Positions 6,778-50,703 of a DNA stretch of 64,000 bases are shown piece by piece. The notes below the pieces were generated by a model. That model had not been told where the DNA came from. It made no database searches and saw nothing but the letters and a program-made list of their open reading frames with translations. How positions within the stretch are numbered: the stretch's first letter is position 1; the number at the start of each line of letters is the position of its first letter. The translations under genes were made by a program, and so were the position numbers. Source of the stretch: Ananas comosus (lineage: Eukaryota; Streptophyta; Magnoliopsida; Poales; Bromeliaceae); the NCBI RefSeq assembly GCF_001540865.1, contig NC_033621.1, forward strand, positions 584,466 to 648,465. Direction: 5' to 3'.

Positions 6778-6780
6778 CTT

Positions 6781-7508: not shown

Positions 7509-7549
7509 TTTTTTTTTAGGAAAAGATAGCATGCTACCTGCTTCATTAA
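7509..7549 (-). repeat. LINE/SINE 3'-tail fragment
   Basis: A T-run followed by 'gatagcatgctacctgcttcatta' is the reverse complement of the LINE/SINE 3' tail seen elsewhere in the window (AATGAAGC..GGTAGCATGCTACC..A-run). Only about 40 bp is recognisable. Confidence 0.5.
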
Positions 7550-8699: not shown

Positions 8700-8830
8700 C
8701 TAAGTGTTTTTTATGAAATAATATTTTCATCGTTGTCATCATTAGCGATATTACTTCTCATAGGCATGGCACAAGTAAGTTTTTTCCAAATCCCTTCTCC
8801 AATCATAGTCGACAGCCTAATTTTTTTTAA

Positions 8831-9482
8831 GGCTAAATTACAGAAAACCCTCCTGTTAAAATCCGCTTTTTCACTTTTCCCCGCTGTCATTTAAAAACCT
8901 ACACTTTACCCCCTTGTAAAATGAAAAATGTGCACTTCACCCCCTGCCGTTAGCGATCCGTTAGGGTTCTGTTATAAAATATTTTTTTTATGCCAAAAAT
9001 ACCCCTCCGCCCTCTTCCCTCTTGCTTCACTTCCTCTGCCTCGCCGCCTCGCCCTCCTCCACTGCCTCGCCCTCGCCCACATCTCCGTTTGCGCCCACAA
9101 CCACCCCCTCGCCCTCCTTCGCCGCCTCGACTTCGCCCTTGTTGCCGTTGCCACCTCTCCATCTACACCCACCTCGATTTCCTCCGTACTGTCGCCAAAA
9201 TCGAGGGGCGACGAGGGTGTAGGAGGAGAAGGGGAGCATGTGGAGAAGAAAATGGAGAGAAATCGTGGCCGATCGAGGGGCAAACCGCAGCCGATCGAGT
9301 CCGCGGATGAGGAGAATGAGGGAGAAGACGAAAATAGCGAATGGCAAAATAGTCATTTTTCACACCATACCGCCCCTGTGCATATTTTTTATTTTACAAG
9401 GAGGCAAAGTGTATGTTTTTAAATGACAGGGAGAGAAAGTGAAAAAGCGAGCTTTGATAGGGGAATTTTTTGTAATTTAGCA
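8831..9482. mobile_element. Mutator-like element with GC-rich core (possible Pack-MULE)
   Basis: Inverted termini of about 150 bp (GGCTAAATTAC at the left, GTAATTTAGCA at the right) are flanked by TTTTTTTAA at 8,822-8,830 and 9,483-9,491. The core, about 9,000-9,330, is strikingly GC-rich and C/T-rich against AT-rich surroundings and is open in several frames at once, as low-complexity DNA is. No transposase was found. The core could be captured host sequence, or simply a family-specific low-complexity insert. Confidence 0.72.
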
Positions 9483-9491
9483 TTTTTTTAA

Positions 9492-10838
9492 TGAATATTC
9501 TATTTAGTAAACTTTTAAATTCCTCTTTATTTTTTCCTTTTTTTAATGTTAGTATGTAATATTAGTAATTATTATAACTTATATTCTCTTTACAGGGGGA
9601 GATTAGTTTGTCCACATACTATTTAATAAAGTTTATAAAAAAAATATATGTATACGGGTACCCGTACCCGATTTAGACCTGACAAGTATCCGATCTTAAA
9701 GGAATAGTATATGGGTAGTCACTACCCAGACCCGCTTAAATAGGTCCGACGGGTATATTAGTAACTTAAGTACCCAGATCCGGACCCGACCCGAAGTTAA
9801 ATGGGTAGGATATATATTTTTTTTTTTCTAACCATTTTTCGGGTACGGGTACAGTATATTAACTATCAAGGAGCATCACAGATTTTCCCGCAAGGAGCAA
9901 ATATCCATAGACCGAAAATGTTCCATCAGTATATTAACTATCAAGGAGCAAATATCCCGAAGAAGCAACAACTCCGTACAGAGTTCATTCTTACCCTCCC
10001 AAAAAGGAGCATCACACACATTTGTAATAAAAAGTAAAATTAATCATCATATAGAAGAGGTCAAAACTTTTTCTCATGAATATATATATTGACATAAGGA
10101 TATATCAGGCCCTTGCTACTGCTCATGCTATGAGACCATTAGATATGTTTTCCAATACCAAGAAGGTAAACTCTCAATCAAATTTCAATCTTTAATAAAT
10201 TAACTTGCGAGTTGCGATTTGTGTTTAGGCATCGCTTCCTGATTTCACAAGCATACTTTAGTTCTTGTGGATCTTCTATAATTTGCAAATCATTGCGAAA
10301 TGCTACAGTAATCAGACAAGTTTTAGAAAAAATTTATAGATTTCGCATGTATTTATGTGAAAAAAAAAAGAAAAATTCCTGTAAGAAATTACTAAGATTT
10401 TGACAAATTTGGATAAGCCCAAGCACCTAAAGTCCTTAAAGTGAAAAATTAAGCTTCTTCTTGTTAAGACTCCAGTGCGAAGTGACTTCCTTTGTCCTTT
10501 TTCTGAAAAATAGTATGGTGATAATCTGAGTTCTAGAGCTACCTAGATTACTAAAAAAATATGATCTAAAAGTAATTAAAAATTTCAGTTTATACATGAT
10601 ATGAATTTTGTTAGATCTCTCAGTACTACTAAACTTACAAATTGGATGAGACATCATTTAGTTGGATAGTATAAAGGCAATGTGCCACTAAATTTTTACT
10701 GCTATCCCTTTTTGTTTCGTACATGTATTTTCGATTTCTAAATGGTTTGAGGATGTAAATCATAACCAATTCGCTTCAATGTTTTTGCATAATTTTGAAC
10801 TGGTTAGAATTTCACAAATAAACAATCCCACATTGAAT
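9492..10838. other. Intergenic, no gene recognised
   Basis: This stretch is AT-rich. It contains GGGTACCCGTACCC-type repeats at about 9,650-9,860, related to those at 7,553-7,740. A 21-bp unit beginning TATATTAACTATCAAGGAGC occurs twice about 78 bp apart (from 9,854 and 9,932). The short open frames resemble no known protein family. Confidence 0.5.
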
Positions 10839-10858
10839 AATAATCAATAAGTAAAAAA

Positions 10859-13015: not shown

Positions 13016-13193
13016 AATAATCAATAAGTAAAAAATTGATATATACCAACAAGCAGAAATCTAATAGGTTTAATTTTTTTGAGTAGATGGCTTTTATTAG
13101 ATATGTTATGTTTTTTTTAGCACACTTGCATAGATCTAAGCTGGACCAGAGCTCCCAAACAATTAGTTTTAAAGCGAGTGGTTTAACAATTTT

Positions 13194-13350
13194 TTTTTTT
13201 TTTTGAGAGATAGGTAGCACGCTACCCGCTTCGTTCATTTCATTTAGAAAATAAACTTAGCTAGAAATGTGAATCAACTAGGATTCGAACTTGAGTCTCG
13301 AGTATCAATCACCAAGTCCTTTGTCACTTACTCTAGGGACGGTCGGTGTC
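13194..13350 (-). mobile_element. tRNA-derived SINE
   Basis: Read on the minus strand it starts GACCGTCCCTAGAG, has an A-box-like segment near AGTGACAAAGGACTTGG and the B-box GTTCGAATCC, and ends in GAAGCGGGTAGCGTGCTACC, CTCTC and an A-run. It is flanked by GTTTAACAATTT at 13,181-13,192 and 13,351-13,362, a target-site duplication. The 3' tail matches the LINE tails in this window. Confidence 0.85.
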
Positions 13351-21583: not shown

Positions 21584-24078
21584 CTACCTGCGTGCTTTCT
21601 TTCGACCTTTCATGCTGGTGGTATCGTCGGATTCTTCTTGCAGGGCTTCCTCCTTGATGTTCTCCGCATCGCTCGCTTCATGGAAGCTCTCGGTCTTGCC
21701 GCTCGACTGATCATCATCATCATCATCCTCCTCTACAGCTTTGTCCGTGGCTTCTAGCTTCGATATTCGGTCCCTGAGGTCTCTGAGTTTGGCCTTCTTC
21801 GAGTTTAAAATAGCCACAAACTAAAAAACACAACATAAACACAACAGCTCAACAAAGAGGTATAGATTTCATGTTCCAAGTTAAGATATAGGAAAATAAT
21901 AAGCTTCGAAGAAAAAAACAACAAAGATAATAACTATTGAGTAATAGGCCTCTTTGGCTTGCTGAAGCTTTTGTAGGAGTGTTGTTGGAAAAGGCATTAA
22001 CAACTTCCTGATAAACAGAAGCACAAGCTCTGAATTTAAGTAGGAAGGGTCGTCAAGGCCGAGAACCACTTTTTAGCTTCATGCCATGGTAAAAACTATA
22101 AGAGTGATTGCTGGATCATAGATGCCCATCCAGCTAAAAGAGTTTGGTAAATACAAGAAGACTGCTGCTTCTCGTACTTTCATGGCCAACATCATGGAAA
22201 ACTACAAAATGCTGGTATTCAAAACCAGATTAGCAAATACAAAGCTGACGCATGGGAGTCGAGGAAAAGGAAAAAGAAAAGAGCTTAAAAAGGAGTGAGA
22301 AAGGGTATAGTAGCCCCCCAACTTTGACGAGGACCCGGCAAGAAATAGAACTGCATGCAGGAAAGGATTTCCCCGGCAACGACAGAGAATTACCTAACAC
22401 TGTAATTTTGTGTAAAACACACAGCATTACAACATGTAAGCGTGTAAGTTCTAGCTATGTAAGAAACCATATAAGACGACGAACATAACGTGAACTCTTT
22501 TAATTCAACAAGAGAAGCAAAAGATAGCAGCCGAGGAAACAAAATGCGTAAAAGAGGCGACAACCTTGGAGTAGACAGAAGACTCGAACTCAACTTTCTC
22601 GTTGCTAAATCTCTCACTTTGTTGCAAGCACCTTTCAGCTTCTGCTTTTAGTTTGTCAAAGGCTTGAGTTTTCCTGACAACCTCTTCCTGTGTAAAATCA
22701 ATTGAAGCCATTATACTTCTTGCATAGCTATCAAAGTCATTTACTAGAGCCCAAAAGTATCGGGGCTTCACGGTCATAACGGAAATCAAATGCTGGAAAG
22801 AAAAGTTTTGAAAGAAAATACTTGAGATCTCTGCTTATGCAGAAAGCCCTCCGCAGAAATTTTCAAAACCTCCCAAAGTCATAAAAACAAACTAACTTTG
22901 GGGGAGGTACAAAGGTTAACCAAATACTCTCTCACCATTAAGAGCACTTCAAACATAGGATAGTAAGAACGAACATCAGTTTCACCAGATATTTCAGCAA
23001 CTTCATCCAAAATTCTCCAGTTTTTTTTTCACGCTACAGTTAAGATCCTTAGTTTAACAAGCTAGTGACAAAAAGCCAACAACAAATACACATGTAACAC
23101 AAATTATCTAAGGAGGAGCTTCAAACATTGGATATTACTTAATCTGAGCAATGCCGAAACGAGAAGAAAAGAGATCTAGCATACACTCAAGCGTATATTT
23201 GCGTCCATGAGGAAATCCAGGATTTCAGCAGTAGTCTGCTTCTTATTTGGCGCCGGTTGGCATTTCCAACGCCACTCCAACTTGGTACCTTGCTTCTCAA
23301 ATGTCCACGATAACTACAAAACCATAAACCGAGAATCAGTACCTACCTCAGCGTATCCTGCAGAGTACAAAAGCAGATGGGGCAATTTCGACCCCTCTCT
23401 AACTTTTACTTAATTTTGATTGATTGACCACCCCGCCAATGTTTTGTTTCTTTGGTTCTGCTAAGAGTTTGTTAGTTAACTGGTAATTTCTTCGAGTAAA
23501 CTGGCTCTTCCGTTTTCTGAGAAGTGAGAGGTAATTAGAGCACGGAACCGCTGTTAAACTGCAGTAAAATTCCCAACTTAAATTACTGGAAAACTGAAAT
23601 CGAGATAAGAGTTGTTAAGCAGGGGGTCAAATTCAAAATGGCGTATACAGGCCCTAGGCCATGATAGTGGGGAGGTCTCTCTCTCTCTCTCTCTCTCTCT
23701 CGAGCAATTTTAGGGTTTCGGTGTGTGTGTTGGTGGAGTAAGGTGGGGGGGAGGGGAATAGACGAACTTCACCCTTCGGGGGGCATGGGGGTCGGCGGCG
23801 GCGTCGAAGGCGTAGCGGGAGCCGGGTTGCTGGAAGGCCAGGTAGCGCTCGGCGAGGGCAAGGTAGTCTTGCGGGGAGAGGTCCCACTGCTCGGCGCGGA
23901 GCTTCACCTCGGCGTCGGAGGCGTCGCACGTCCACGCCTCCGCCCCGTCGGTGACCGCCAGGGAGAAGCGTGAGGGGTGCCACGTCCCCTTCACGAAAAT
24001 GGCCGCGCCGACGGCCCCCTCCCTTTTGGGGTCCTCCACCGGCAGCTCCAGCTTCAGGCACGTATGCCGCGTCGCCAT
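21584..24078 (-). CDS. XRCC4: DNA double-strand-break repair protein XRCC4
   Basis: Four exons on the minus strand, all in phase 0 with GT/AG junctions: 24078-23773, 23313-23185, 22687-22565 and 21820-21584. The product is about 264 residues, the usual length for plant XRCC4. The N-terminal beta-sandwich head includes CLKLELPVED, WHPSRFSLAVTDGAEAWTC and YLAFQQPGS. Exon 2 encodes LSWTFEKQGTKLEWRWKC and ILDFLMDANIRLS; exon 3 is the start of the coiled-coil stalk (EEVVRKTQAFDKLKAEAERC). Exon 4 finishes the stalk (ILNSKKAKLRDLRDRI) and an acidic then basic tail ending KGRKKARR. In known plants XRCC4 dimers bind DNA ligase IV in non-homologous end joining in the nucleus. The ATG at 24,078 is preferred over an in-frame upstream ATG at 24,258, because the extra residues are a low-complexity Ser/Pro leader. 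Confidence 0.95.
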
Positions 24079-24258
24079 TGATGGAGAGAGGGAGAGAGAT
24101 GAGGTTGCAGGAGGAGGAGGAGGAGGAGGAGGAGGGTTGGGATTTAGGAAGGGGAAGAGACTGCTAATAGAAAGAAGGGGTGAGAACTGAGGGAGGCTAC
24201 ACAGACTACTCGGCTTGCTGTGCAAGACAGCTGAGTTGTTGTGTTCGTGCGACGCCAC

Positions 24259-29287: not shown

Positions 29288-29325
<38 letters not shown>

Positions 29326-29327
<2 letters not shown>

Positions 29328-29450
29328 AGAGAAAGAAAGGTAGCATGCGAAATTTAGTTGGAAATGTAAAATAATAAATCTTCGAACTTCAAACCTCCGA
29401 TACCAATCATCAAGTTCTTTGTCACTTGCGCTAGTAACAGTCAGTCTTAA
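29326..29450 (-). mobile_element. Diverged SINE copy
   Basis: GAGAGAAAGAAAGGTAGCATGC, then a stretch ending in CTTTGTCACTTGCGCTAG and CAGTCAG, matches the reverse complement of the SINE family, with internal loss around the tail. This is the last element before the mirrored block that clearly reads in the normal direction. Confidence 0.6.
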
Positions 29451-29466
29451 TATTTGCACACAATTA

Positions 29467-29527
<61 letters not shown>

Positions 29528-29715
29528 GAGGTGCACGAGGTACACATGATAGTCCTCGCACGGTCCACGAGATCCCGCATCTGCTTGCGGACTCCTTCCA
29601 CCTGAACTTTTAGTTTTCTGTGGGAAAAAAAGCGGAAAACAAAAAATCAAGTTTCCCCTAAAATTTGTAATATCACTTTTTTTCACAAACCAACCTTATC
29701 CACCCTATTCTTTTA

Positions 29716-29937
29716 TTACTAACTATTTCTTCTTTTTACACTCCCAAGCCCTACGCACGCCCCAATTTCAACCCTCCTCCTCACCCCAATTACTAACTAT
29801 TTCTTCTTTTTACACTCCCAAGCCCTACGCACGCCCCAATTTCAACCCTCCTCCTCACCCCAATTACTAACTATTTCTTCTTTTTCCACTCTCGAGCCTT
29901 ACGCACGCCCTAATTTCAACCCTCCCCCTAACCCCAA
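29716..29937. repeat. Three tandem copies of a 74-bp unit
   Basis: Units start at 29,716, 29,790 and 29,864 (each TTACTAACTATTTCTTCTTT...). The first two are nearly identical and the third is diverged. It lies in the mirrored block, within a GGTTGGGG-type MITE-like element that has a relative at about 31,950-32,315. Confidence 0.8.
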
Positions 29938-30255
29938 TCATTTGGGGTGATTGGGCCAAACCCTACCCCAATCATTTAGGGTGGGGAATTCTTACCACAA
30001 ACCTATATTTAACCCCCAATTCTTTAATAAGGTGGCTAATTGGGGTTGGTTTGCCACCGATTGATTTGTAACTTAAACTTTGAGCGGTGCGCGCATAAGT
30101 TGTTATTAATTTAATTAGTTATGTTCGTTAGTAAAGAGAAAGTGATAATCAGTATGTATAGAATAGAATGTGTTATTTTGTACTTTTACAGTAACGAAAT
30201 TATCTACAGTGTTCTTAACGTACTTTATTATAAGATGGATGTTAATTATGAAAAT

Positions 30256-30611
30256 CCTTTTTGAAGTTTTTGGGGAGGACACCAAAGCACGTAAGAGTGA
30301 AACGATGGGACACCAAATTTTGCATAGTTAAACGGGGGGACACCAAAGCAAAAATAGAAAAACAATAGTTAAAATAATAATAAAAAAAATTTTTAGTCAC
30401 TGTTTCATTTTTAATTTCCTATGATTTCACTGATAAGCTATTTATATCTACCAATAGACTTCAAAAAACATATATTAAATTGCTTTATAATTACTTTTTC
30501 GAAGGCTTTTCTATTTTTACTTTAGTGTCCCCCCATTTAACTATGCAAAATTTGGTGTCCCATCGTTTCACTCTTACGTGCTTTGGTGTCCCCCAAAAAA
30601 CTTCAAAAGGG
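30256..30611. mobile_element. Mutator-type MITE written in mirror image
   Basis: Long inverted termini of about 100 bp, flanked by TATGAAAAT (30,247-30,255) and TATGAAGAT (30,612-30,620), a 9-bp duplication with one mismatch. Read right to left it begins GGGAAAACTTCAAAAA, then TGTGGTTTCGT and TCTCACTTTGC, closely following the element at 48,085. In the written direction it does not match that element. Confidence 0.9.
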
Positions 30612-31336
30612 TATGAAGATTATTATGTACTTATTACGTACGATGGAAAAAGATTTTTTTTTTTAATGGTGAGATATATATATATATATATATACACACA
30701 CACGAAAATTTTTATATTGTGAAATACTTCATTTTAACTAGATAATAAGAAAAGGTCACCTTATGAAACACTTAGAATCACAAAGACGACTCGTGACGGC
30801 TAAGGATTTTTCTCACTCCAGAGTGTCGGCCGCGCCTCAGGGATACAGAGGGACGCGGCTCACGGTGGTTAGGGAGACGGCTTACATTTTTCGCTATGTT
30901 TCATTTTTAGATATGTTTGGAGGAGTTGATTATCGAAAAAAAAAACAAAATAACTCCAAAAAAAAAAATTGATTTATTAAATCTGTTTTTTTTTAATAAT
31001 TATTAAATATTATAATATATTCAAATTAAAAAATTAACTAACTATTAACTATTATTCATGTTAATGATATGAATGAAATTAATGCGTGTTTGAGTTTATT
31101 TTATTCATATCGCTAACTCCCTAACTTTATGTTATGATAGTTAGGTGTACAAATAAATACTATCATTGTCAGTTGCTCATACAATATTTAAAAAAAAAAA
31201 AAACTATCTAGCCGTCGTACGATGAACGAAGCAAATAAAGTAAATCTTTATTTGAATCGACCTTTACACTTAGTTAATCTTAAGCTTGAACCTTAGACTC
31301 ATGGTTTTTTTTTTTTTCTTCTTTGCTCATCATATA

Positions 31337-31456
31337 AACATGATTACCGAAAAAACTTAGGCTTCCTACTACTCCTCCTCTTTTAAAAACTTTTTTAACT
31401 ACCGAAGATGAACTTGTGTGTTTTACGAGGAACCTAAGTTGTTTTGTCGTTGTTAC
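31337..31456. repeat. Copy of the foldback-element centre
   Basis: About 110 bp here repeats 34,366-34,472 in the same orientation with scattered changes. Both lie in the mirrored block. It looks like a fragment of the same foldback element. Confidence 0.6.
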
Positions 31457-32399
31457 AATGAATAGTTGGATCGGTAAACGATCTAGACAACGCTTTTTTT
31501 AACAATCCAGGCCTTCACCTTCTTTCTACCTTACGTGGCCTCTGATCAAAATCAAAAAAAAGGATACTAGAACTCGTTCAACAATCTAAACCTCAAAAAA
31601 TTTCTTTTTTCGTTCCTGTACCAAATCTTTATTTATCGATTACATCGACCGTTAGTTATTAACCATTACTTTATCTTAAAACATATGCTTTTTTTATTAT
31701 TTTATCAATTAAGGTATTTTCCATTCATTTAACATTTTAAAATGGTTTCAATATGGTTTACAAAAAAAAAAAAAAAATTATTTCATTGCTTATCAATCAA
31801 AGAGCACGTGTGATGTAGCGTGCACGGTGGCCCGGAAACAACCAACCCAACTCACAAGCGAAACCAGTTCTAAACTCGAGCTTGGTAAAGTTTGTCAAGT
31901 TGGTAGTTCTTCGACCTTTGTTGCAATTTCGATGGCAAACTAAGCACCAATTCTTTTTTGATCAATAAAATCCTTATACCAATTCAAGTTTCAATTCCAT
32001 TCTAATTTTATAAAAATACAAACCAACTTTTAATCTCAATCAGGTACTAATTTTTTTTATCACAAATCAATCTTATCTATCTTATTCTTCCTATCACTCA
32101 TTTTATCACAAAATAAACCAACCTCATCACCACACCTTACCATAATCGACCCCAACCAATTAAGGTGAGGTTTACTCAATAAGACTTAATCGGGTAAACC
32201 CTACCTCAATTGATTGGGGTGGAGGATGTTATTACAAACCCTTATTTTGGCCCCAATTCCCCAATAGGTTGGGGAATGGGGGCTTGGTTTGTGTTCAATC
32301 TAATCTCAAAAAACAGCGCAGGACACATCGAGCTCGAGGGCGGCCGCTGGCGAGGCGGTTCGGAGGTGGCGCGGGATCGCCAAGAACTCGAGAGCCTAG

Positions 32400-33600
32400 G
32401 GCTAGGGCTCGTAGTAGGGACGCCGCTGCTAGGGCTGGGGAGGAGGCTCGCAGGTGGCACGGGATCGCTAAGAACCTCGAGGAACCCTAGGACTAGGGAC
32501 CTCGTTAAGAACCTGGAGATCTCGGAGTAGCTAGGGACGTCGCTACTAGACTGAGAACCTCGATGCCGGCGGGATTACACTCTAGGAGAGAAGGAGAACA
32601 CGATATAATTAGGTAGCTAAGGACGGTCTTTTACTGACAACTTAATGGGATCACTAAGGTTAGACAACTTAGGACGTGATAATTGACAGCATCAAGGAAC
32701 CACTAAAGCTAGACAGCTTAGGACGAAACGTAACAAAGGGAGCCGGACCAATCTTTATTGACAACTTAATGGATCACTAAGGTAAGAGAGCTTAGGACGC
32801 GATTATTGACAACATAAGGGTATCGCTGAGTTTAGACAGCTTAGGACAAGACGTAACAAAGGGAGCCGGCTAAGAAAACGGCTCGTCCCCGTCTCTTGCT
32901 AGAGTCCTTATCGACGTTTATTGACAACTTAGGGATGACCACCCCTACATCTATAACATATCGAGACGTTTGTTTTTTTTTTTTCTTTCTCATACACTAC
33001 CGAAAAACCATAACACGAACAACATTAACACGTCGCTACTAGGACTGGGGGGCGACGAACTCGTAGGTGGCACGGGATCACTAAGAGTCCCACGAAACCC
33101 TAGGGTTAGGGACCTCGTTAAGAACCTCGAGATATCTTAGTAGGGACGTGACTAGGGACGTCGTTTCTAAGCTAAGAACCTCGACGTCGACTAGGAAAGC
33201 GGCTCGCGGCACTACACTCTAGGAGAGAAAGAGAAGAAACAAGATGAAATTAGACAGCTTAGAACGATTCTTTATTAACAATTTTAGTTTATTGACAACT
33301 TAAGGGGATCGCTAAAGTTACAGCTTAGGCCGTGACTATTGACAACTTAAAGGGATCGTTAGGGTTAGACAACTTAGGACGAGAAGTAACAAAGGGAGCC
33401 GACCATGAAAGCGGTTCACCCCCATCCCATGCAAGGGAGCTCTCTCCCACTCCTCAGCTCGGAAAGAAGGGGAAGCGGTGCGCTCCGGTTAACGAGGTCC
33501 GGGCTCGAGTGAACACACAGGGGTGTGACTTGTGGCGAGGAAGTTCGGGATTACACTCTAAGAGAGAAGAAGGAGAGATCGATATCATTATTTTCAAAGT
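32400..33600. repeat. Degenerate direct repeats, GC-rich, unassigned
   Basis: A segment at 32,400-32,640 recurs at about 33,010-33,260, and a shorter related stretch is at about 33,530-33,600. Between them, short phrases such as GACAACTTAA, GGGATC and TTAGACA recur several times. The block is mirrored; no coding signal was found in it in mirror reading. It may be a degraded repeat array or transposon interior. Confidence 0.5.
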
Positions 33601-33779
33601 CTTTATCGACGTTTATTGACAACTTAAGGATGTCCACCCCTACATCTATAACGTATCGAGAACAATTATCAGCACTACCAATATTCTTTATCTTTACATA
33701 CACGACTGAAAAACCATAAAAAAAACGACATTAACAAACTAATGAAATAATATCCCCCTCACGAATAAAGGAGCTAAAT

Positions 33780-35082
33780 AAGAGTTTTTATTTTATTTTT
33801 GACAAACTTAGAACGACTTCAATAAAAAGGGGAAAAAAAACTTTTTTTTTTTAAAGGAAAGTACAAACGAAGTCTCTTATTACCTCGGAAAACACCTCCT
33901 AGATTTACAACTGGACTCAGCATCGTTTGTTAAGCATCACTAGGTACGCTTAGCTGGTTTGTGGCATTAAGCTTCCCAAGGAGGAATAAACTCTCTTCGC
34001 CCAGTTGTCATGATGTGAGGTTTACATCAAAGTTAACCCGGTATGGTAACTCCTTTTGGCTTAGACGTCCCTCTACCTTCAGTCGACGGATACTAAAATA
34101 GCGCTCGAGATTAGTACGTCAACTGCTCAAAATACGCTTTCATTTACTTCACTAATTGGTTCGCGCTTCGCGAATACTCCTACTGAAACCAGTATATTCA
34201 CTGTTTCTTAAATGCGCTAAATACAACTAACTACGAACGAAAAATGAAGTTAAATACAACTGACAAAATCTATCTTTAAGGTACACCAGTTTCCCTCATA
34301 GCAAGTGTTTGTATAGGTTTCTATAATAGAATCGGCTTTTGGTCAATGGCACCAAACATGATTACCATTAAAACTTAGACTTCCTACTACTCTTCCTCTT
34401 TTAAAAACTCCTTTAACTACTGAAGATGAACCAGTGTGTTTTACGAGGAACCTAAGTTGTTTTGTCGTTGTTAGGAAGTCTAGGTTTTAACGGTAATCAT
34501 GTTTGGTGCCATTGACTAAAAGCCGCTTCTATTATAGAGACCTATACAAACACTTGTTATGAGAGAAACTGGTGTACTTTAAAGATAGACTTTGTCAGTC
34601 GTATTTAACTTCATTTCTCGTTCGTAGTTAGTTGTATTTAGCGCATTTAAGAAACAGTGAATATACTGGTTTCAGTAGGAGTATTCGCGAAGCGCGAACC
34701 AATTAGTGAAGTAAATGAAAGCGTATTTTGAGCAGTTGACGTACTAATCTCGAGCGTTATTTTAGTATCCGTCGACGAAGAAAATACTGAAGGTAGAGGA
34801 CGTCTAAGCCAAAAGGAGCTACCATACTGGGTTAACTTTGATGTAAGTCTCACATCATGACAACTGGACGAAGGGAGTTTATACCTCCTTGGGAAGCTTA
34901 ATGCCACAAACCAGCTAAGCGTACCTAGTGATGCTTAACAAACGATACTGAGTCCAGTTGTAAATCTAGGAGGTGTTTTCCGAGGTAATAAGAGACTTCG
35001 TTTATACTTTCTTTTAAAAAAAGGTTTTTTTTTTCCTTTTTATTGAAGTCGTTCTAAGTTTGTCAAAAATAAACTTCTCCGC
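33780..35082. mobile_element. Large foldback (inverted-repeat) element
   Basis: Two arms of about 610 bp (33,780-34,388 and 34,470-35,082) are reverse complements of each other at high identity, around an 81-bp centre. Reverse-complement symmetry survives mirroring, so this structure is real in the source DNA. No transposase frame was recognised. It lies downstream of GDSL copy A in that gene's true reading direction. Confidence 0.85.
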
Positions 35083-36017
35083 GTCTCGATCTAGCACAGA
35101 AGTAGCTTGCTAAAAGGTGTTATCCCTTCATTATCACAGTCGTCATTGAAAGTAGAACGAACAAAAATCTTAAGACGTTTGGAAAAAGTGTTAAAAAGGT
35201 GAGTTTGTGATCTAAGAAAAAGAGGACAAAAAGAACACCGTATCCCTGGTACCCCACCTAGAAACAAAGATTTCTCCGTAACCTGACAGACCAAAAACAA
35301 CACGGAAAGATTGCCGTAACCTAGCGACAAAAAAAAATACAGCTATTACAAAACATGACATTTATCTTTGAAGCCTAGTAGAAGGTAGATTACTTACATA
35401 CAAACGAATAGAAACGAGACCTAATTAGATTCATCTGAAGTCTAAAAAATCAACAAAATCAAAATGAAAAATGCAAAGAACGCGTTGATAAATCAAAGTA
35501 TGTGTAGTACTGTACTTATAGATAAATACTACACATATAAGTGCTAAACATAGTTTAAAATGAGCCAATCAACCTAATACCGTTCAACCTGTTTTAAAAC
35601 CAAAGACGTCTTTGTCTTCGACAATAAATGTTTAAACCAAGACGACGATACTGAACAAAAAAGAGGAAATAAAAAAAAAAAACCCACAATTTCAACTCAA
35701 GAGAAACCTAAACTATAACCTCTCTTAATAAAGAGGAGTGGTTGTAGACATCGTGATTCTACACAAGATTCAAGATTCTCGCCACCTCTCTTGTTTTTAC
35801 CCTATTATATATCTCTAATGATACGGTGGGTGTCGGTTGTATCAGCTAGTTATGTGGCGTTATTAAAGAATTAAAACGAAGAGTATGTATAGAAAAATTA
35901 AGCTTGAAATAATGGAACTAGCCGTAGTACTGTTATTGTTGTAACTACTTTATTTTGATTAAATTTACTAAATGTTAATATTAAAACTTCTCGCGTATTT
36001 TCGTCCTCTGTGTGACG

Positions 36018-38221
36018 AGTTGAAGACGTTTCTCAACACTCGAATTAGACCCCTAATCTTATAAAAGGACTATCATAGAATCTTCGCCGATAGAATAAAC
36101 GTTGAAGACACATCACATGGGGTAGGGTCGAATAACTGGCTAGCGGGTGGCGTGTTCGACAGCGGCACCCGACCGGCGTTCAATAGGCTAGACGCATCAA
36201 CATGCCGCCGGGCGGCACCGGCGTTGTTCGGTAGTTACCCAAGAGTTTTGGACCTTATTTAAAATATACATTAGGCGTACTTTAGCTCGTGGAGAAATTG
36301 GAACAAGACTCATTAAATTAAAGGACAAGCCTCTTTTTGAGGGAGTACCATATTGGGTTAAGGTGTAATGTGAGAACACTAAGAGTTTTTTCTTTTTGTG
36401 TCCTCGTTTGTTTATTTTCTTTACCTTTTATCGAAGGGATATATACATGCATATGAGTGGCATAAGAAATACTAATCGCTTCTCTAGTATGAACTATCTT
36501 ATGTATAGACACGTCTGTCATCATCGTAAGAACATGAGCCTTGAGTTAAACAGCGTATTAAATAAGTAAACGAGCAATTTTCGAAAACGACGTAACAACA
36601 TTAGTCGTTCTGTCGGGTTGTCTAGTTCGAGCGACAGCAAGAAAAAGGAGTCGCGTTCGCAGACGCCATTTGTAGGTTCCCCGGGACATAACATATAGGT
36701 CTTAAACGCTGGTGGTAAAAGCATATGATTGACGTTAGAATTTCTTGATTTAGTTAGGGTCGAGGTAAACTATTCGTAGGTGGTATCTAGTGGTGTATTA
36801 AGTCCGATTGATCATCACTAATACAAAATTCTTAACAGCTGGAATTTGGTTGATAGTGATTCGCCGCGTACAATTCATGTAAAACCAATCGAGATAACTG
36901 ATAGGAAACTTAACTAATGTACCGTACTTCTATTGTGAGCACCTGAAGTAACACAACTTCATGCTCTTTGTTTTAAATTTCTTTTTACTATTTAACACAC
37001 CCACAACTACTCTATGCCAACTACAGCTTTACCATGAGCTCTTTTTTCTTGACTTTGATGTTCACTTTTACATAGAACAATTTCGTCTATGACTGATGAT
37101 GGTTTCCTTTGTTGTATGCCACGCTTTTCCTATCAAGTTTCTCATTGAACGGAGTTACCGTAGAAGCTAAGAACTCTCTTATCTACCATACAACAGGTGC
37201 TGAGCCCCTATCGAGTTCAATCGTTACTTCCGCTATCTCTATAGTAAGACGGGGTACAGTTTCCTTATTTGACGTAGTACCTTAAGGAAGAGCGACTAGT
37301 TACTTGGATTCGGACATTTCTCTGATAGCAGCGTATAGTTGTATAGATGTAATGACTATATTAACCTATAGTTATCATTCGTCTTGAGATTAATGTATAG
37401 TTATACTTTTGTGATTTTCCGATGTACACATCTAAAATATCCTAGAGATTATCACTCGGGTTTTTTTGGTTCTTCTCTTCAAATAAATCCACTTTATCTA
37501 CTCTATAAGAACAAGCACCTTCAGGTGTTGAGGTGTTGAAGTCCTATAAAAACATTGTTTGACGTGAAAGTTCCACATTTGTACGTGACTATACGGATTC
37601 ATTCACGGGGTTTAACTATAACACTCGAGGTTGACCTGGCTTCGTTTACATTACACTAAGCGTTCTTCCTTTGTCTGGAAAACTCGCCTCTAGAGCGCAC
37701 GCTAAGAACTTCACTTCCTTAACTTCTTGAACTCATCTATTTCCTTTACCTTGAGGCCAGTAGACTCACCGGTGTGGTCGATGTCGTTTCAAGTGAGGTA
37801 CGCATTTCAAGCTGGGACTGCTGAGGTCTATTCCCGAGTCTATTAAATAGAAGTTCAAGAGTGGACGTTGTCATTATTTGTACAATAATGAGTGTAAGTC
37901 GTCATTTATGTAATGACGAGTGCCATTCGTGTCAAATTACAACCGTATTCGCTTAAGATTAGTGTATGTCTACTTTAGTTATATGTCGGCCGGCAGTGTC
38001 TTGGCCGGTCATCAGAACACCTTCTTAACCGCCGGCCGACCCCCCGGCTCTATCTCCGGCTCTGGTCTCCATTCCCGGGGGCACAGCCTCAAGCTTAGTG
38101 GTTTCAACTTCTATTATGTAAACCTTAGTTGTACTCAACCATTTCCTATATTGTGTTCCTAGTGTTGTTGTTTGTCTAATAACTTTCTTCCCTCTGATAT
38201 AGGACGGGACCTTAATGGGTA
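36018..38221. CDS. GDSL esterase/lipase (copy A), readable only in mirror
   Basis: Read from high to low coordinate WITHOUT complementing. Exons: 38221-37969, 37863-37678, 37312-37152, 36730-36460 and 36250-36018. These give 1,104 nt and 367 residues plus stop, with all phases matching. Introns are GT/AG except the third, which is GC/AG (GAG|GCAAGT). An N-terminal hydrophobic signal segment (about residues 12-32) is followed by GDSNSDTG with catalytic Ser43, block III GQND with Asn169, and block V SWDGVHYTE with Asp333 and His336. It also shows YNTGPLGCLPQ and CCGHGGPPYNY. This is the plant secreted GDSL group that includes ENOD8-like and alpha-fucosidase-like members, acting on ester bonds outside the cell; the substrate is unknown. 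The start follows a 17-codon upstream frame that ends inside the coding region. Confidence 0.94.
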
Positions 38222-39295
38222 GGGAGGGAGGAAAAAGCAGAGAGGTCAAGAACCAGTGTTGGTAACGAACAGAGAATAATCGCGGTGTGGAGAAGTTGGG
38301 TACATATTGATTTAATAAAAAAACAAACAGTGATTTTTTCCTGAAGCAACTAGGTTTTGTAGGTTCCGGAGATATGTGTCTTGTACTGATTTGTTGATTC
38401 TACAAACTTCATTTTGTTAAGACTGTTGTCACTGTCAAACAAATGAAATAATCTTCTCTGAATTAAATGTCTTTTCCCGTAGATGTCTTTTCCTGTTTCA
38501 TGTGAACTTTCACTCCGGGTTACTCCCACCGTTACTTGGTGGTGTACTACACCATGTAAAGGGTTGTTATCCTTTCCCACTTTGAACCGTGTCTCCCCCA
38601 ACCTCTTATCGGTTTAACGGTACAATGAGTATAGGGTCAACGGTATTTATTCTCTTATTGTGTTCTACCTACCATAACAATCCAAAACTGGATCTCCCGA
38701 CCCCGGTCCTTTTCAAATTGTTTAGATCTTGTTTATCTGTTTGACCCAGTTCCACAGGACACCGATTCTAGATCCCGTAAACATCAAATCGTAAAGATAA
38801 TGAATAACTAAAGAAAAAAATATCCTCGTCAGTCTAACTAGAAGTTTATTAGAACAACCTATCACTTGGCTTAAACTCTCCTGTAACTGGTTCAGTTCAG
38901 CGACTGGCTCAGTTCACACAGAAGCCCTACACCTAGCAAAAGACCTAATTGGGAGCTCACGCGGTGCTAGTTCACTAAACTAACCCTTCCCTAGTCGAGT
39001 TGGCCTAAGTATAAGTTTTTTTAATCGACTAGGCTTAAATACTTGTCTGAGCCGACAATCTCAGCTTAGTTAACATATAACATGAGGTTTAATTTTCATT
39101 TTGATTTTTGGAAAATTCTCGGCCTAAATAATCTCGCCGAGCAATACGCCTAACCGAAAGGTTATATCAAGAACACGCAGAAAAAAAACACGGCTGTAAG
39201 GACATGGTCCTCTTTTAACATTGTGAGGTTATATCCATGAGCACGCAGAAAAGGTAAGCTACATTATGCTTTTCTTCAAGATTAAACTTCAAAAG

Positions 39296-39690
39296 TAATG
39301 ATGGTCGTGATAGATATAGCCGAATTCGAAATGTAGAAGTAAAAATAGAAAATTCGACGTACGGAGTACGGACATGAAGGATACATATGTTTGGAAAGGT
39401 GTACATAAATCCATGAAAACAATGAAATAGGAAGTAACTTAATACGTACTACGGACTTCTACTTGTGTCTAATGATGGTCGTGACAGACTTAATTCAATA
39501 TTTAAAAGTAGAAATAGAAAGTTCAGCGTACGGTTATGAAGTATACATATATTTTGAAAGTTATACGTAAATCAATTAAAATAATGAAATAGGAAATAAC
39601 CTAATACGTACTCCGACCTTTACCTGTGTCTAATGATGGTAATGAAAGACTTAGCTCAAATCGATGTTAAAAATAGGGATATATTTTTAG
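39296..39690. repeat. Tandem repeat, about 161-174 bp unit
   Basis: The phrase TAATGATGGTCGTGA starts units at 39,296 and 39,470, with a third, variant start (TAATGATGGTAATGA) at 39,631. It lies between the two GDSL copies in the mirrored block. Confidence 0.65.
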
Positions 39691-39817
39691 AAAGTCGTAC
39701 ATAGATTAATCACCTATTTATGGGTCGTTATTAAAGAATTAAAGTGACTATCTTACTTTGATTAAATTTATTAGATGTTGGTATTAAAACTTGTCGTATA
39801 TTTTTGTCCTTGTGACG

Positions 39818-42455
39818 AGTTGAAGACGTTTCTCAACACTCGCATTAGACTCCGAATCTTATAAAAGGACTAACATAGAATCTTCGCTATTAGAATAAAC
39901 GTCGAAGACACATCACATGTGGTAGGGTCGAATAACTGGCTAGTCGGCGGCGTGTTCGGCAACGGCACCCAAACGGGGTTCAGTAGGCTAAACGTATCAA
40001 CATGCCGCCAGGGGGTACCCGCGTTGTTCGGTAGCCACCCAAGAGTTTCGGACCTTATTTTGTATACATTAAGTGTACTTTAGTTCGTGGAGATATCGGA
40101 AAGAGACTCATTTAAGCACAATCCTGTTTAAAGTCTATCGGGGAGTACTATATTGTATTAAGGTTGTCGTCTCATCCTTTACATAAGCCAATTTTTATGT
40201 TATCAATATTGACGTATATAAAACAAACTAACCTACATCGATTTTGGTAACGTTGATTTTTATTAAATAAATCAATGTATGTTAACTTAAATAAAATATA
40301 TATACCTCTGCTCTAATAGAGGTTTCATCTTTTCTTTAAAAGTCAAATTTTTCACTACTCTCCATTTGAATATAAAATAAATTTTAATAAAAAAGATTGA
40401 CAACGTCAATCTTGACATCGATTAAACCTGAACTAAACTACGTAAACTTAGGTTGACAACACCAACCTTGACGTACTTTTCTGAGTTGATGTTATCAACC
40501 TAAATTTACGTAATTTAGTTTGTAACCTAAACTTAGACATACATTAATATTGATGCCACGTCACACGGTGCGGGGGACTCCTTATTGCCACGTTGTTTGT
40601 TTATTTTCTTTACCTTTTATCGAAGAGATATATGTATATGAGTGGCATAAGAGATACTAACCGTTTCTCTAGTATGAACTACCGTATGTACAGTCACGTC
40701 TGTTATCATCGTAGGAACATGAGTCTTGAGTAGAACAGTGTATCACATAAGTAAACGAGTAATTTTCGAAATCGACGTAACAATATTAGTCGTACCGTCG
40801 GGTTTCCTAGATCGAGCGACGGTAATAAAAAGGAGTCGCGTTCGCAGACGCCATTTGTAGGTTCCCCTGGGCATAACATCTAGGTCTTAAAGGCCGGTGG
40901 TAAAAGCATATGACTGACGTTACAATTTCTTGATCTAGTTAGGGTCGACGTAAAACATTCGTAGGAGATATCTAGTGGTGTATTACCTCCTGCTGATCAT
41001 TACTATGACCAAATACTTAAAAAGCTGGAATTTGGTTGATAGTACTACGTACGACTTACGTAAAATCAATCGAAATCACTGATAGGAAACTTAACTATTG
41101 TAACGTACTTCTATTGTGAAACACCTGATGTCACACAACTTCAAGTTCTTTTGTTTTAAATTTCCTTTTACTACTTAACGCACTTACAAATGTTCTATAC
41201 AAACTACAAGCTTTACCATGAGTGACTTGATGTTCAGTTTCACATAGAACAATTTCATTTATGACACATTATGGTTTCTTTTGTTATATGTGTACGCTTT
41301 TCCTAGGAAGTTCCTCATTGTACGGAGTTACCGTAGAAACTACGAACTCTCCTATCTACCCTACAAGAGGTGCTGAACCCCTATCGAGTTCAATCGTTAC
41401 TTCCGCGATCTCTATAGTAAAACGGGGTACAGTTTCCTTATTTGCCGTAATGCTTTAAGGAAGAGTGACTAGTTACTTGGATTTGGACATTTCTGTGATG
41501 TTAATGTATAGTTACATTGATGTATGACTATATTAACGTATGGTTGTCATTCGTCTTGAGGTTAATGTATAGTTATCCTTTTGTGATTACCCCGATGTAC
41601 ATATGTAAAATATGTTACAGATAATCACTCGGGTTGTTTTGGCTCTTTTCTTTTCAAACAAATCCACTTTATCTACCTATAAGAACAGACACCTTTTCAA
41701 GGGGGTCCTTAAACTGCTGTGATGTTGAAGTCCTATAAAAACATTGTTTGACGTGGAAGTTCCCCGTATATACCTTTAAACCTAAAAATGTTCCAATACA
41801 TTATAAAAATCTAGTAAAACGTCCTCATGTGACTATGGGTGTTCATTCTCTCGGTTTAACTATCATATTCGAGGTTGACCCGGGTTAGTTAGTAATTTTT
41901 TGGTTGTACGTTACACTAAGTGTTTTCCATTATCTGGAAGACTCGCCTCGAGAGCGCACGCAAAGAACTTCACTGCCTTAACTTCGTGAACTCATCTATT
42001 TCCTTTACCCGGAGGTAAGCCAACTTACCGACGTGGTCGATGTCGTTTCAAACGAGGTACGCATTTCAAGCTGGGGCTGCTGAGGTCTATTCCCGAGTCT
42101 ATTAAATAAAAGTTCAAGAGTGGACGTTGTCGTTATTTATGTACTAACGAGTGTAATTCTTGTCAAATTGGTACCTTACTCGCTTTAGATTATTGTGTGT
42201 CTACTTTAGTTATATGTCGGCCGACAGTGTCTTGGCGGGCCTTCCGAACACCTTCTTGACCGCCGGCCGGTCGTCCTCTCGGCTCTGCCTTCGGTTGTGG
42301 TCGTCATTCCCGGGCACAGCCTCAAGCTTAGTGGTTTCAACTTCTCTTATGTGAACCTTAGTTGTATTCAACCATTTCCTATATTGTGTTCCTATTGTTG
42401 TTGTTTGTCTTCTCGATTTCTTGCCTCCGTTATAGAACCAGAACCTTAATGGGTA
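39818..42455. pseudogene. GDSL esterase/lipase (copy B), mirror-written, exon 1 frameshifted
   Basis: Read from high to low coordinate without complementing. Exons: 42455-42200, 42122-41937, 41485-41325, 40915-40645 and 40050-39818. Exons 2-5 have exactly the lengths of copy A and are open, with the same GC/AG third intron and the SWDGVHYTE block. Exon 1 differs by +1, -2 and +4 nt: block I (GDSNSDTG) is out of frame with the start and a stop follows early. The +3 net change restores frame before exon 2, so the shifts may be recent or sequencing errors in GC-rich DNA. A conserved Cys of copy A (TCGQ) is Trp here (TWGK). Intron 4 is about 385 nt longer than in copy A, suggesting an insertion around 40,170-40,560. 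Confidence 0.85.
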
Positions 42456-43559
42456 GGGGGAGGAAGGGTACGGGGAGTAAAGAGCAGAGAGGTCAAGAAC
42501 CAACGTCGATAACAGAGAGAATCACGACGTTGAGAAGTGGGGTAAATATTAGTTAATAATAAAAAAATAAATAGTGATGTTTTTAAGTAACTAGGCTTTG
42601 TTGTTTCCGGGGATTTTGTCTTTTCTGATTTGTTAAGTTTACAGTTTCATTTGGGTTTTTCTTTTATAAACATGAATACAATCTCTACTTTTAACAAGAC
42701 TGTTCGTCATAACGTGATCCCATCTGAGATTTATGAGATTCTTTACATCTACGTACTATGAAACAAATGAAACAATCTTCTTTTGATTAGATGTCTTTTC
42801 CTGTTTTGGAACACTTACAACGTGCTACTCCCACCGTCACTTGGTACTGTACTATATCATGTAAAGGGTTGTTATCTTTTCCAACTTTTAACCGACTCCC
42901 CTGTCCTCTTATAGGTTTAACGGTACAACGAGAATAGGGTAAAACGGTATTATTCTTTTATTCTGTAGTACCTTTCATGAGAGTTCGGAACTAGATCTTC
43001 GGTTCCCGGTTTTTTTCCAATTATCTAGATCTCAGTTTATCTGTTTATACCACTTCCACAGGTCGCCGGTTTTAGATCCCGTAGATTTCAAATCCATAAC
43101 AAACTATAGTGACAGGAAAAAAACAAAAAGACAATATATAAACTATCCAACGTCTTTTCTGAAAAGAAACTAATCATTCGAATGTTACGTAGGCCGATTT
43201 ACTATCTACTTTAAAAATAAACAAAAAGACAATATATAGTTTAAAAATAAAAAACAACAGTTTATTTGTGGTATTTAATTTTCTAATGTTTGATAGGTGA
43301 TGGGTGACGACATGGAAAATCCGTGTTTTAAGATGAATTTTTTTTTTGTTTTTCGTTTGTGCTATGGTTTGCTCCGGAATCGTATAATAATAAATAATTG
43401 TAGAACAAAATATCCTCGTCAGTTCAAGCCTAAAAGTTTATTAGAAATTGAAAATTAACCGAAGAATAAAATTTCTTCCTTAATTTCAAGTCTGTTCAGG
43501 TCTTGAAATTTGCTATTTTTCTTACTTCAAGACTTCCGTTGGTGGTAGTTTTATTAATG

Positions 43560-43975
43560 AAACAGACCCAACTTATTTAAATTATCCCGTTTAACCGACA
43601 GTGTTGTCTCAACCTCCTAAGTTAAACAGACCCAACTTATTTAAATTATCCCATTTTGTCGACAGTAATGTCTTAACCTCCTAAGTTAAACAAAGACAGG
43701 TAGATATCAAAATGATATTGTATTAACCAGTTGATTTGGTGAATTGATATATGTTTATGTCCGTAACTTACGTTTTTTGCATGGCATTGTCATTAGACCT
43801 ACGATATAAACTGAATTGTCTCAAGCTCCTAAGTTGAACAGATAGGTAGGTAGATATCCAAATGATATTATAGTAACCAGTTGATTTGGTCAAATAATAT
43901 ATTTATCTCGGTAACTTACGTTTATCCATGACATTGTTATTAGACCTACGATATAAACCGAATAAAAGAGAAGCC
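43560..43975. repeat. Two short tandem duplications
   Basis: A 64-bp unit (AACAGACCCAACTTATTTAA...) occurs at 43,561 and 43,625. A unit of about 150 bp beginning near GGTAGATATC occurs at about 43,700 and 43,848. Both lie in the mirrored block, on the promoter side of GDSL copy B. Confidence 0.6.
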
Positions 43976-44070
43976 AAACAGTATTTTGATTGGGTTTTTG
44001 ATAAAAGCAAGCCTTTTATTTTAAAACGAACAAACCAAGCTGCTTTTTGTCAAAAGAGTATTTTTACCAA

Positions 44071-44071
44071 N
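44071..44071. other. Single N at the right edge of the mirrored block
   Basis: One undetermined base separates mirrored DNA on the left from normally written DNA on the right. To its right, sequence such as GATTCCGATTCC and GCGAACCAAAGACGCC with a following TTA reads like a Harbinger-type MITE end in the usual direction; no matching left end is found. Confidence 0.7.
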
Positions 44072-45795: not shown

Positions 45796-45936
45796 TTTTT
45801 TGAGAGTCACGCTACCCGCTTCGTTTATTTCATTTAAAAATAAACTTAGCTAGAAATGTGAATCAACTATAATTCAAACTTGAGTCTCGGATACCAACCA
45901 CCAAATTTTTTGTCACTTGCTTTAGGGACGGTCGGT
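45796..45936 (-). mobile_element. tRNA-derived SINE
   Basis: On the minus strand: CCGACCGTCCCTAAAGC, degraded B-box, GAAGCGGGTAGCGTG tail and an A-run. The target duplication TGTATGTATGTATGT is at 45,781-45,795 and 45,937-45,951. Confidence 0.83.
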
Positions 45937-47692: not shown

Positions 47693-48084
47693 AAAAATGG
47701 ATTGGATATTAAGTGTTAAATGAATCTCATTATATATTCCACATGAATTTCCTTATACGTAGCCAAAATGTTGGGTACACTTATCTAAGTACGTACATGC
47801 GTAATGAAATGATTGTATCCCTGCAGGTTGGATGATTCAATGATTTATACGCTTCGTAACTAAAGAAACTATATTAGTGTGTCAAATATCAAGCTTCTGA
47901 TCACAATGATATATTTTCTGCATCGAAAAGTTGGGCAAAATAAGCTATGCATCGACTCAACAAAAGTAAAATGCGTTCGTTGATGAATTCTCATAACCAA
48001 ATAACAATAGAGCTAAAAAAAATAAAATAAAAGAAGGTTATATAAGCATGCCTCCTCACAGTAAAACCATTATTATTATAATAA

Positions 48085-48431
48085 GGGAAAACTTCAAAAA
48101 CCTCCATGTGGTTTCGTAGTTTCTCACTTTGCCCTCATGTGGTTTAAAATGTATCAATTTGTCCCCCTGTGGTTTCTTTTTTCTCTTTTTCTTATCAAAA
48201 TTTTTTTTTTCTTAAATCAATAATAGAGTTAAAATTAAAGAATGCTAAAGTGAATATTTGATAAATCTAGATGGTATCTGAAGTTTTTTGTATATAATTT
48301 AATAAAATATTAACGAAAAAATTACCAAAAATATAAAAACAAAACCACAGAAGGACAATTTGATACATTTTAAACCAAAAGGGGGCAAAGTGAGAAACTA
48401 CGAAACCACGGGGGGTTTTTGAAGTTTTCCT
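48085..48431. mobile_element. Mutator-type MITE with 9-bp target duplication
   Basis: 347 bp with inverted termini of about 90 bp (GGGAAAACTTCAAAAACC at the left, GGTTTTTGAAGTTTTCCT at the right), flanked by TTATAATAA at 48,076-48,084 and 48,432-48,440. Non-coding. It serves as the normally written partner of the mirrored element at 30,256-30,611. Confidence 0.88.
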
Positions 48432-50450: not shown

Positions 50451-50519
50451 AAAACTCATATCAATTTAATTTGATCTAAAGGTTAGAATTTTATGATTAA
50501 ATATGATAATAAAATTATA

Positions 50520-50557
<38 letters not shown>

Positions 50558-50636
50558 NAAAACTCATATCAATTTAATTTGATCTAAAGGTTAGAATTTT
50601 ATGATTAAATATGATAATAAAATTATAATATACATA

Positions 50637-50640
<4 letters not shown>
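50451..50640. repeat. Perfect duplication across an N (contig-join artefact)
   Basis: About 85-90 bp starting AAAACTCATATCAATTTAAT at 50,451 is repeated exactly from 50,559, immediately after the N at 50,558. Each copy runs into a (TA)n tract. This is what two overlapping contig ends look like when joined without merging. Confidence 0.9.

Positions 50641-50703
<63 letters not shown>

What the first reader, a model, noticed from the sequence alone, without database searches (positions are those of the whole stretch)
29640..44070. A 14-kb block of the window is written backwards without complementing
Seen directly: read right to left with no complementing, the block gives two five-exon GDSL lipase genes with correct splice sites, a full catalytic set (GDSNSDTG, GQND, DGVH) and identical lengths for exons 2-5 (186, 161, 271, 233 nt). 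In the written direction, on either strand, these genes cannot be read. Independently, the MITE at 30,256-30,611 matches the MITE at 48,085-48,431 only in mirror. DNA inversion always complements, so no known process makes this. Inference: one contig was string-reversed instead of reverse-complemented, or the segment was altered on purpose.
Basis: partly seen in the sequence, partly recalled or inferred. Interest (0 to 1): 0.98.

Follow-up and report, generated by a model that had tools for sequence, protein, structure and literature searches.

The report
Backwards-written contig in pineapple reference genome
A 14-kb piece of a plant chromosome sequence (likely pineapple) is spelled backwards without swapping the bases and repeats genes that the same genome assembly spells correctly on another chromosome, so it is most likely a computer error made when the genome was put together; similar backward pieces turned up at other places in the same assembly.

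Summary
From about 29.6 kb to the N at 44,071 the window is string-reversed without complementing. Read backwards it gives two GDSL lipase genes with the claimed exon lengths; one encodes a complete 367-aa protein, 99% identical to a pineapple protein. Against 200 kb of neighbours the block has 0 matches as written and 20 reversed; three control segments behave oppositely.

The same assembly holds the gene pair in normal orientation on contig C4: a 741-base stretch there is identical to the reversed block, and the block's right end matches C4 at 99%. The block is most likely a misplaced, mirrored, redundant contig: an assembly artefact.

It is not alone. Four further loci contain mirrored stretches, one with a proteasome alpha subunit. 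Three marker words give 61 mirrored of 3,776 copies, about 1.6% or 6 Mb. If C20 is chromosome 20, a published 94.2-kb "F153-specific" segment is at least partly mirrored, so some published presence/absence variation is likely this artefact. Deliberate alteration is not supported. The software step was not identified.

The parts
29640..44070 (.). Block written in reverse order without complement; left junction uncertain (29,289-29,670)
44071..44071 (.). Single N (assembly gap) at the right edge of the block
36018..38221 (.). GDSL lipase gene 2, read right to left without complement: exons 38221-37969, 37863-37678, 37312-37152, 36730-36460, 36250-36018; 367 aa, intact
   Evidence: Pfam Lipase_GDSL 5.1e-45; 99% to Ananas comosus P0001
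39818..42455 (.). GDSL lipase gene 1, read right to left without complement: exons 42455-42200, 42122-41937, 41485-41325, 40915-40645, 40050-39818; exon 1 frameshifted
34472..34987 (.). DUF247 protein fragment, read right to left without complement
   Evidence: Pfam DUF247 7.3e-37
33792..35073 (.). Inverted duplication inside the block
30256..30611 (.). MITE in mirror form; matches 48,084-48,430 only reversed
31187..31306 (.). Second repeat family in mirror form (matches 13,188-13,308, 45,808-45,882 and others reversed)
29671..29960 (.). Repeat that, when reversed, matches 40 scored loci (of 511 candidates) in normal orientation; sets the left limit of the block

Best explanation
The block is string-reversed, uncomplemented sequence whose genes the same assembly holds in normal orientation on contig C4, so it is most likely a software error made when contigs were joined or gaps were extended, and not a feature of the living genome. 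The assembly is likely pineapple (Ananas comosus F153). Shown: mirror orientation, a correct relative on C4 (identical over the 741 bases compared), the N at the right edge, and other mirrored segments in the same assembly. Inferred: a merging or gap-extension step used 'reverse' where it needed 'reverse complement' and attached the reversed contig to the end of the contig on its left, leaving the N on the other side. Also inferred: that the block belongs on C4, and that reversed contigs survived redundancy removal because a mirrored sequence aligns to nothing. The tool was not identified.
For: As-written block 0 hits, reversed 20 hits in 200 kb of neighbours; three control segments 20/18/28 as written and 0/0/0 reversed. 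GDSL protein from the reversed reading: E 2.8e-251 and 99% identity to a pineapple protein, 2 differences in 367. C4 holds the exons in six-frame reading, C1:614,105-628,535 shows none among 95 matches. C4:443,060-443,800 = reversed block, 741/741. Right end of the block, reversed, matches C4:512,452-512,752 at 99% over 1-300. Further mirrored loci C921, C18, C8, C3053. Reversed readings of two of them give a proteasome alpha subunit (Pfam 2.4e-40, PDB 6.1e-82), a PPR protein (Pfam 3.9e-40; 99% to pineapple) and a Polyketide_cyc2 protein (1e-23); as a control, 8 of the longest as-written ORFs of this block, L039 and L041 match no Pfam family. Mirrored matches run right up to an N run in this block, L039 and L040, and mirror-like composition starts 7 bases after an N in L038.
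Against: No raw reads were seen. The left junction was not resolved and no mark of the join is visible there. The as-written search of the genome did not list the block's own place, which is unexplained; 3,000 bases fetched at its left edge were identical to the window. Only 741 bases of the C4 text were compared letter by letter; at the left end the one C4 match near the expected place is a 194-base repeat at 94%, no better than other copies. C4 has two copies of the gene pair, so a true extra copy on C1, wrongly written, is not excluded. L041 (C3053) shows no N within the 10 kb fetched, and L038 holds one 32-base match as written inside its mirrored part.
Confidence: 0.97

Rival explanations
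1. Same error, different step: an in-place reverse complement was applied to a flipped scaffold by a case-sensitive routine that reversed lower-case (gap-filled) letters without complementing them; the true sequence would then be the complement in place.
For: Blocks abut N gaps on one side, and in the window the other side joins normal sequence without N. At C8 the complement looked at first like a continuation of the neighbouring repeat.
Against: A spliced query built on that idea at C8 gave 43 matches, none of which reaches more than 3 bases across the splice; this does not support it, but the repeat may simply end there. The window block's relatives stand on C4, so complementing in place would probably not put it in its right place.
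Confidence: 0.12
2. The segment was altered on purpose (a planted test or a watermark).
For: No natural process known to me reverses DNA without complementing.
Against: 3,000 bases fetched from the deposited genome equal the window; mirrored marker words occur on 32 contigs, 18 of them among C1-C25 (counted); if C20 is chromosome 20, another group reported an F153-only region that is at least partly mirrored.
Confidence: 0.01
3. A real structural change: a biological inversion or a diverged region that only looks mirrored.
For: None found.
Against: A real inversion is reverse-complemented and would read normally on the other strand; the block gives no match on either strand in the neighbours and the genes are open only in the string-reversed reading. 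The 741/741 identity of the reversed string to C4 excludes chance.
Confidence: 0.005

Closest known systems
Contig misjoins and redundant haplotigs in draft assemblies
   Same: Sequence whose relatives stand on C4 sits at a gap on C1 beside an N; chimeric regions in F153 v7 chromosomes are reported in PMC8774480 (passages read).
   Different: Here the contig is also string-reversed without complement, so aligners, gene finders and redundancy filters would not see it.
Genomic inversion
   Same: Order of features is reversed.
   Different: An inversion is reverse-complemented; this is not.
F153-specific presence/absence regions of PMC8824783
   Same: 15,973 regions, 24.18 Mb, absent from both GL1 and CB5, with 108 PAV genes; the longest, chr20:65,001-159,200, holds no PAV genes (passages read). 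Taking C20 as chr20, the one sample taken inside it is mirror-like and 4 of 45 mirrored marker words fall in it.
   Different: The passages read treat the regions as accession-specific, and mention an incomplete F153 assembly as a possible cause of low variant counts; they do not mention reversal.

Membership tests
String-reversed (uncomplemented) assembly segment | Similarity to other DNA of the genome only after reversal without complement | tested here: met
   0 as written against 20 reversed in 200 kb of neighbours; controls opposite. In the whole genome the as-written text does match other loci, of which all four extended proved mirrored
String-reversed (uncomplemented) assembly segment | Genes readable only in the reversed string | tested here: met
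   four of the longest as-written ORFs of the block match no Pfam family
String-reversed (uncomplemented) assembly segment | Short-word asymmetry mirrored (CG/GC and 6-mers) | tested here: met
String-reversed (uncomplemented) assembly segment | The correct text exists in normal orientation | tested here: met
   741/741 on C4; right end 99% over 300 bases; the rest of the block not compared, left end only a 94% repeat match
String-reversed (uncomplemented) assembly segment | Raw reads contradict the written order | not testable with these tools
   no reads at hand
Genomic inversion | Segment reads normally on the opposite strand | tested here: not met
   blastn searches both strands; 0 hits as written
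GDSL esterase/lipase (proteins in the block) | Pfam PF00657 above its cut-off in the reversed reading | tested here: met
   154.6 bits, cut-off 23.6, gene 2; gene 1 not scanned
GDSL esterase/lipase (proteins in the block) | GDSNSDTG, GQND and DGVH blocks (motif roles as recalled) | tested here: met

The most novel reading that the evidence does not exclude
The pineapple F153 reference genome carries several megabases of string-reversed sequence spread over most chromosomes, invisible to aligners and gene finders, and a good part of the 24 Mb reported as F153-specific presence/absence variation, including its longest 94.2-kb segment, is this one software error.
Probability: 0.7. Interest if true: 0.6.

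Novelty: not a real feature. Interest (0 to 1): 0.45.

Why it matters
As biology it is nothing: in all likelihood the reversed DNA does not exist in the plant. For users of this assembly it matters. Genes inside mirrored blocks (a proteasome alpha subunit at C18, a PPR protein on C3053, GDSL lipases here) cannot be read there as written, reads would not map, and comparisons of cultivars would count the blocks as sequence found only in F153. A scan for reversed, uncomplemented matches is cheap and is not, as far as I know, a standard quality check; it could be run on any assembly of that generation.

Tried and rejected
Complement-in-place (the block only lacks complementing and is otherwise in its right place): tried at the C8 locus with a spliced query; none of 43 matches reaches more than 3 bases across the splice. 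That does not support it, though the repeat may end there; with the relatives on C4 it was set aside. A looser BLAST around junctions was swamped by TA repeats and its output was cut; no conclusion drawn. Marker word CTCCCAAGCCCTACGCAC gave 2 mirrored (both in this block) and 2 normal copies; left out of the pooled count. The ORF in the chr20 sample resembles a U-box/USP plant protein from memory only; Pfam and PDB gave nothing, so it is not used as evidence. Searches for a printed description of reversed, uncomplemented assembly segments and for misassembly of F153 showed none that fits; only listings were seen (30 of 61 papers, 12 of 40), plus passages of PMC9635638, which concern ordinary reverse complementing. 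The paper that I recall as the source of the assembly (doi 10.1038/ng.3435) is not held, so the responsible tool could not be looked up. A search of plasmid records with the MITE found nothing.
Full report
WHAT WAS CLAIMED AND WHETHER IT IS THERE. The finding says that 29,640-44,070 is written backwards without complementing. Among ORFs of 70 aa or more in all four readings of the block (as written, reverse complement, plain reverse, plain complement), GDSNSDTG, GQND and DGVH occur, each twice, only in the plain reverse. Two genes of five exons follow, with exon lengths 256/186/161/271/233 and 253/186/161/271/233, introns GT-AG except a GC-AG third intron in each; the second gene is open over 367 codons, the first has a frameshift in exon 1. 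Pfam gives Lipase_GDSL at 5.1e-45 for the intact protein and DUF247 at 7.3e-37 for another reversed-reading ORF of the block. Four of the longest as-written ORFs of the block match no Pfam family.

IS IT MORE THAN CHANCE. Four tests, only the first of which depends on genes. (1) The spliced protein has 994 relatives at E <= 0.001; the best, P0001, is a GDSL esterase/lipase of Ananas comosus at 99% identity and E 2.8e-251; the two differ at residues 100 and 115 only. (2) Self-comparison at E <= 1e-5: all 7 mirror matches join the block with the outside, and no ordinary match in the list joins inside and outside. (3) Against 200 kb of flanking chromosome (20 loci) the block has 0 matches as written and 20 reversed; three segments of equal length from the window's flanks have 20, 18 and 28 as written and 0, 0, 0 reversed. 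(4) Composition: CG and GC ratios are swapped, and a strand-symmetric 6-mer score trained on the neighbours finds one mirror-like segment, 30,067-43,966, at -228, against a worst of -13.6 in any of the 20 neighbours scored leave-one-out.

EDGES. The right edge is the single N at 44,071. On the left, ordinary matches run to 29,288; reversed matches start at 29,671, one at 29,668. The junction is therefore inside about 29,289-29,670. Other single Ns lie at 216 and 50,558; the latter separates two copies of a 107-base sequence at 99%, the look of two overlapping contigs placed side by side and not merged.

WHERE THE CORRECT TEXT IS. The window is G000:C1:584,466-648,465; G000 has 381,958,007 bases in 3,128 contigs. 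A six-frame search of G000 with the reversed-reading protein finds the gene pair on C4, minus strand, at 443,070-449,447 and again at 504,538-510,959, and nothing at C1:614,105-628,535 (95 matches, 111 of 180 candidates scored). C4:443,060-443,800 was fetched and equals the reversed, uncomplemented block at 741 of 741 bases; the second C4 copy could not be fetched. The reversed right end of the block (300 bases) matches C4:512,452-512,752, in the second copy, at 99% over its whole length. The reversed left end (440 bases) matches a repeat at 40 scored loci of 511 candidates, among them C4:437,044-437,237 at 94%, no better than other copies but about 0.3 kb from where collinearity with the first C4 copy puts it. 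So the block is a mirrored relative of the C4 segment, most likely a redundant contig misplaced on C1; the C4 text was compared letter by letter over 741 bases only. P0001 lies on a contig of 15,584,765 bases, C4 has 15,577,694; I do not equate them.

IT IS NOT UNIQUE. A search of G000 with the block as written gave 103 matches, all within a few short stretches of the query (585-1,064, 1,544-1,667, 2,290-2,652, 10,611-10,924), 39 of 269 candidates scored. The block's own place is not in that list, which I cannot explain; 3,000 bases fetched across its left edge equal the window. Of the eight loci cut out, two scored like the block (-14.1 and -12.5 per kb; block -15.6), two slightly negative (-3.3, -0.8), and four positive (1.3, 2.6, 8.2, 8.5); seven loci fetched with an unrelated repeat scored 1.6 to 11.7. 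I extended four of the eight to 10 kb (L030, L033, L036, L029). All four contain mirrored matches: L038 (C921), 40 mirrored matches at 4,596-8,592, mirror-like composition from 2,996 just after the N at 2,989, and one ordinary match of 32 bases at 5,720-5,751; L039 (C18), 26 mirrored matches ending at 7,450, the N at 7,451, and 27 ordinary matches from 8,364 on; L040 (C8), 11 mirrored matches, only at 4,953-5,267, starting right after a run of 25 N, with 38 ordinary matches on both sides; L041 (C3053), 29 mirrored matches at 4,950-9,731 and no ordinary match. The other four were not extended; two of them (L032, L034) look ordinary around a mirrored MITE, so their mirrored part is short or the reading fails there. 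The 6-mer score is weak on short stretches: L029, inside mirrored L041, scored 2.6.

GENES IN THE OTHER BLOCKS. Reversed readings give, in L039, a proteasome alpha subunit (Pfam 2.4e-40; best PDB chain 7qve_k 6.1e-82) and a kinase fragment (1.4e-9), and in L041 a PPR protein (3.9e-40) and a Polyketide_cyc2 protein (1e-23) (places). As a control, the two longest as-written ORFs of each of these two loci match no Pfam family. The PPR protein is 99% identical to a pineapple protein. L038 gave no reversed ORF longer than 104 aa and none was searched.

HOW MUCH. The genome search reports for each word the count of the same word read backwards. MITE word: 14 mirrored (2 in this block) and 430 normal. 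Second repeat: 45 and 3,009. Third repeat: 2 and 276. A fourth word was too rare to use (2 and 2). Pooled over the first three, 61 of 3,776, or 1.6%, about 6 Mb; singly 3.2%, 1.5% and 0.7%. Intervals for the first two are 1.7-5.2% and 1.1-2.0%; these words cluster within blocks, so the intervals are too narrow. The mirrored words lie on 32 contigs, 18 of them among C1-C25.

A PUBLISHED CONSEQUENCE. PMC8824783 (passages read) mapped 500-base windows between three pineapple assemblies and found 15,973 F153-specific regions, 24.18 Mb, with 108 PAV genes; the longest is chr20:65,001-159,200 without PAV genes. Taking C20 as that chromosome 20 with the same coordinates (an assumption), 4 of the 45 mirrored words of the second marker fall at C20:101,254-103,828, where 0.011 are expected if independent (P 5e-10; the four are neighbours, and for at least one word P is 0.01). 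A 1,500-base sample at C20:110,001-111,500 scores -8.2 per kb, against a mean of 10.6 and a minimum of -2.4 in 63 overlapping flank windows (3 negative) and a mean of -16.7 and a maximum of -5.7 in 17 block windows, and has 0 matches as written and 3 reversed. The segment is at least partly mirrored. My total of about 6 Mb would explain roughly a quarter of the 24 Mb; the rest is not explained here.

SPECIES AND FLANKS. A flank reads normally: an ORF at 23,710-24,258 (-) is XRCC4-like (best 51% over 83% of the query; annotated XRCC4 proteins at about 57-68%; 32 proteins listed, none from pineapple).

MECHANISM. Shown: mirror orientation, a correct relative on C4, mirrored matches running right up to an N in three of the five blocks studied and mirror-like composition starting 7 bases after an N in a fourth, mirrored words on 32 contigs. 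Inferred: a merging or gap-extension step wrote reverse instead of reverse complement and attached the contig at a contig end; mirrored duplicates then escaped redundancy filters. The alternative that the block merely needs complementing in place was tried at C8 and not supported (43 matches, none more than 3 bases across the splice), though not excluded. The tool is unknown.

VERDICT. Observation confirmed, interpretation supported and extended: an assembly artefact that recurs across the genome. Not a biological feature.

Noticed in passing
G000:C20:101,254-111,500 (L042): Mirrored words and mirror-like composition inside the published 94.2-kb F153-specific segment chr20:65,001-159,200 (taking C20 as chr20), suggesting that this presence/absence variant is at least partly an artefact.
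   Followed up: partly
G000:C4:443,070-449,447 and 504,538-510,959: The GDSL gene pair stands twice on C4, 61.5 kb apart, with equal match scores for four of the five exons of gene 2 but not for gene 1; either a segmental duplication or a second assembly duplication.
   Followed up: no
window 50,451-50,665: A 107-base sequence is repeated at 99% on both sides of the single N at 50,558, as if two overlapping contigs were set side by side and not merged.
   Followed up: no
L024 around 176 and 4,279 (G000:C1:698,466-708,465): Similar GAC-rich repeat sequence stands next to two of the three single Ns in this locus, perhaps another unmerged overlap.
   Followed up: no
G000:C3053 (59,435 bases), L041: The 10 kb fetched have only mirrored matches, and marker words at 9,706 and 26,615 are mirrored too, so much or all of this unplaced scaffold may be reversed; it carries a PPR gene in the reversed reading.
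   Followed up: partly
window 33,792-35,073: A 1.3-kb inverted duplication inside the block at 90% identity; similar DUF247-like protein text appears in a second reading of the block.
   Followed up: no
window 29,715-29,938: Three tandem copies of a unit of about 74 bases; the genome has many copies of the parent repeat in normal orientation.
   Followed up: partly
The whole-genome search with the as-written block did not list the block's own place although the deposited bases fetched there equal the window; cause unknown.
   Followed up: partly
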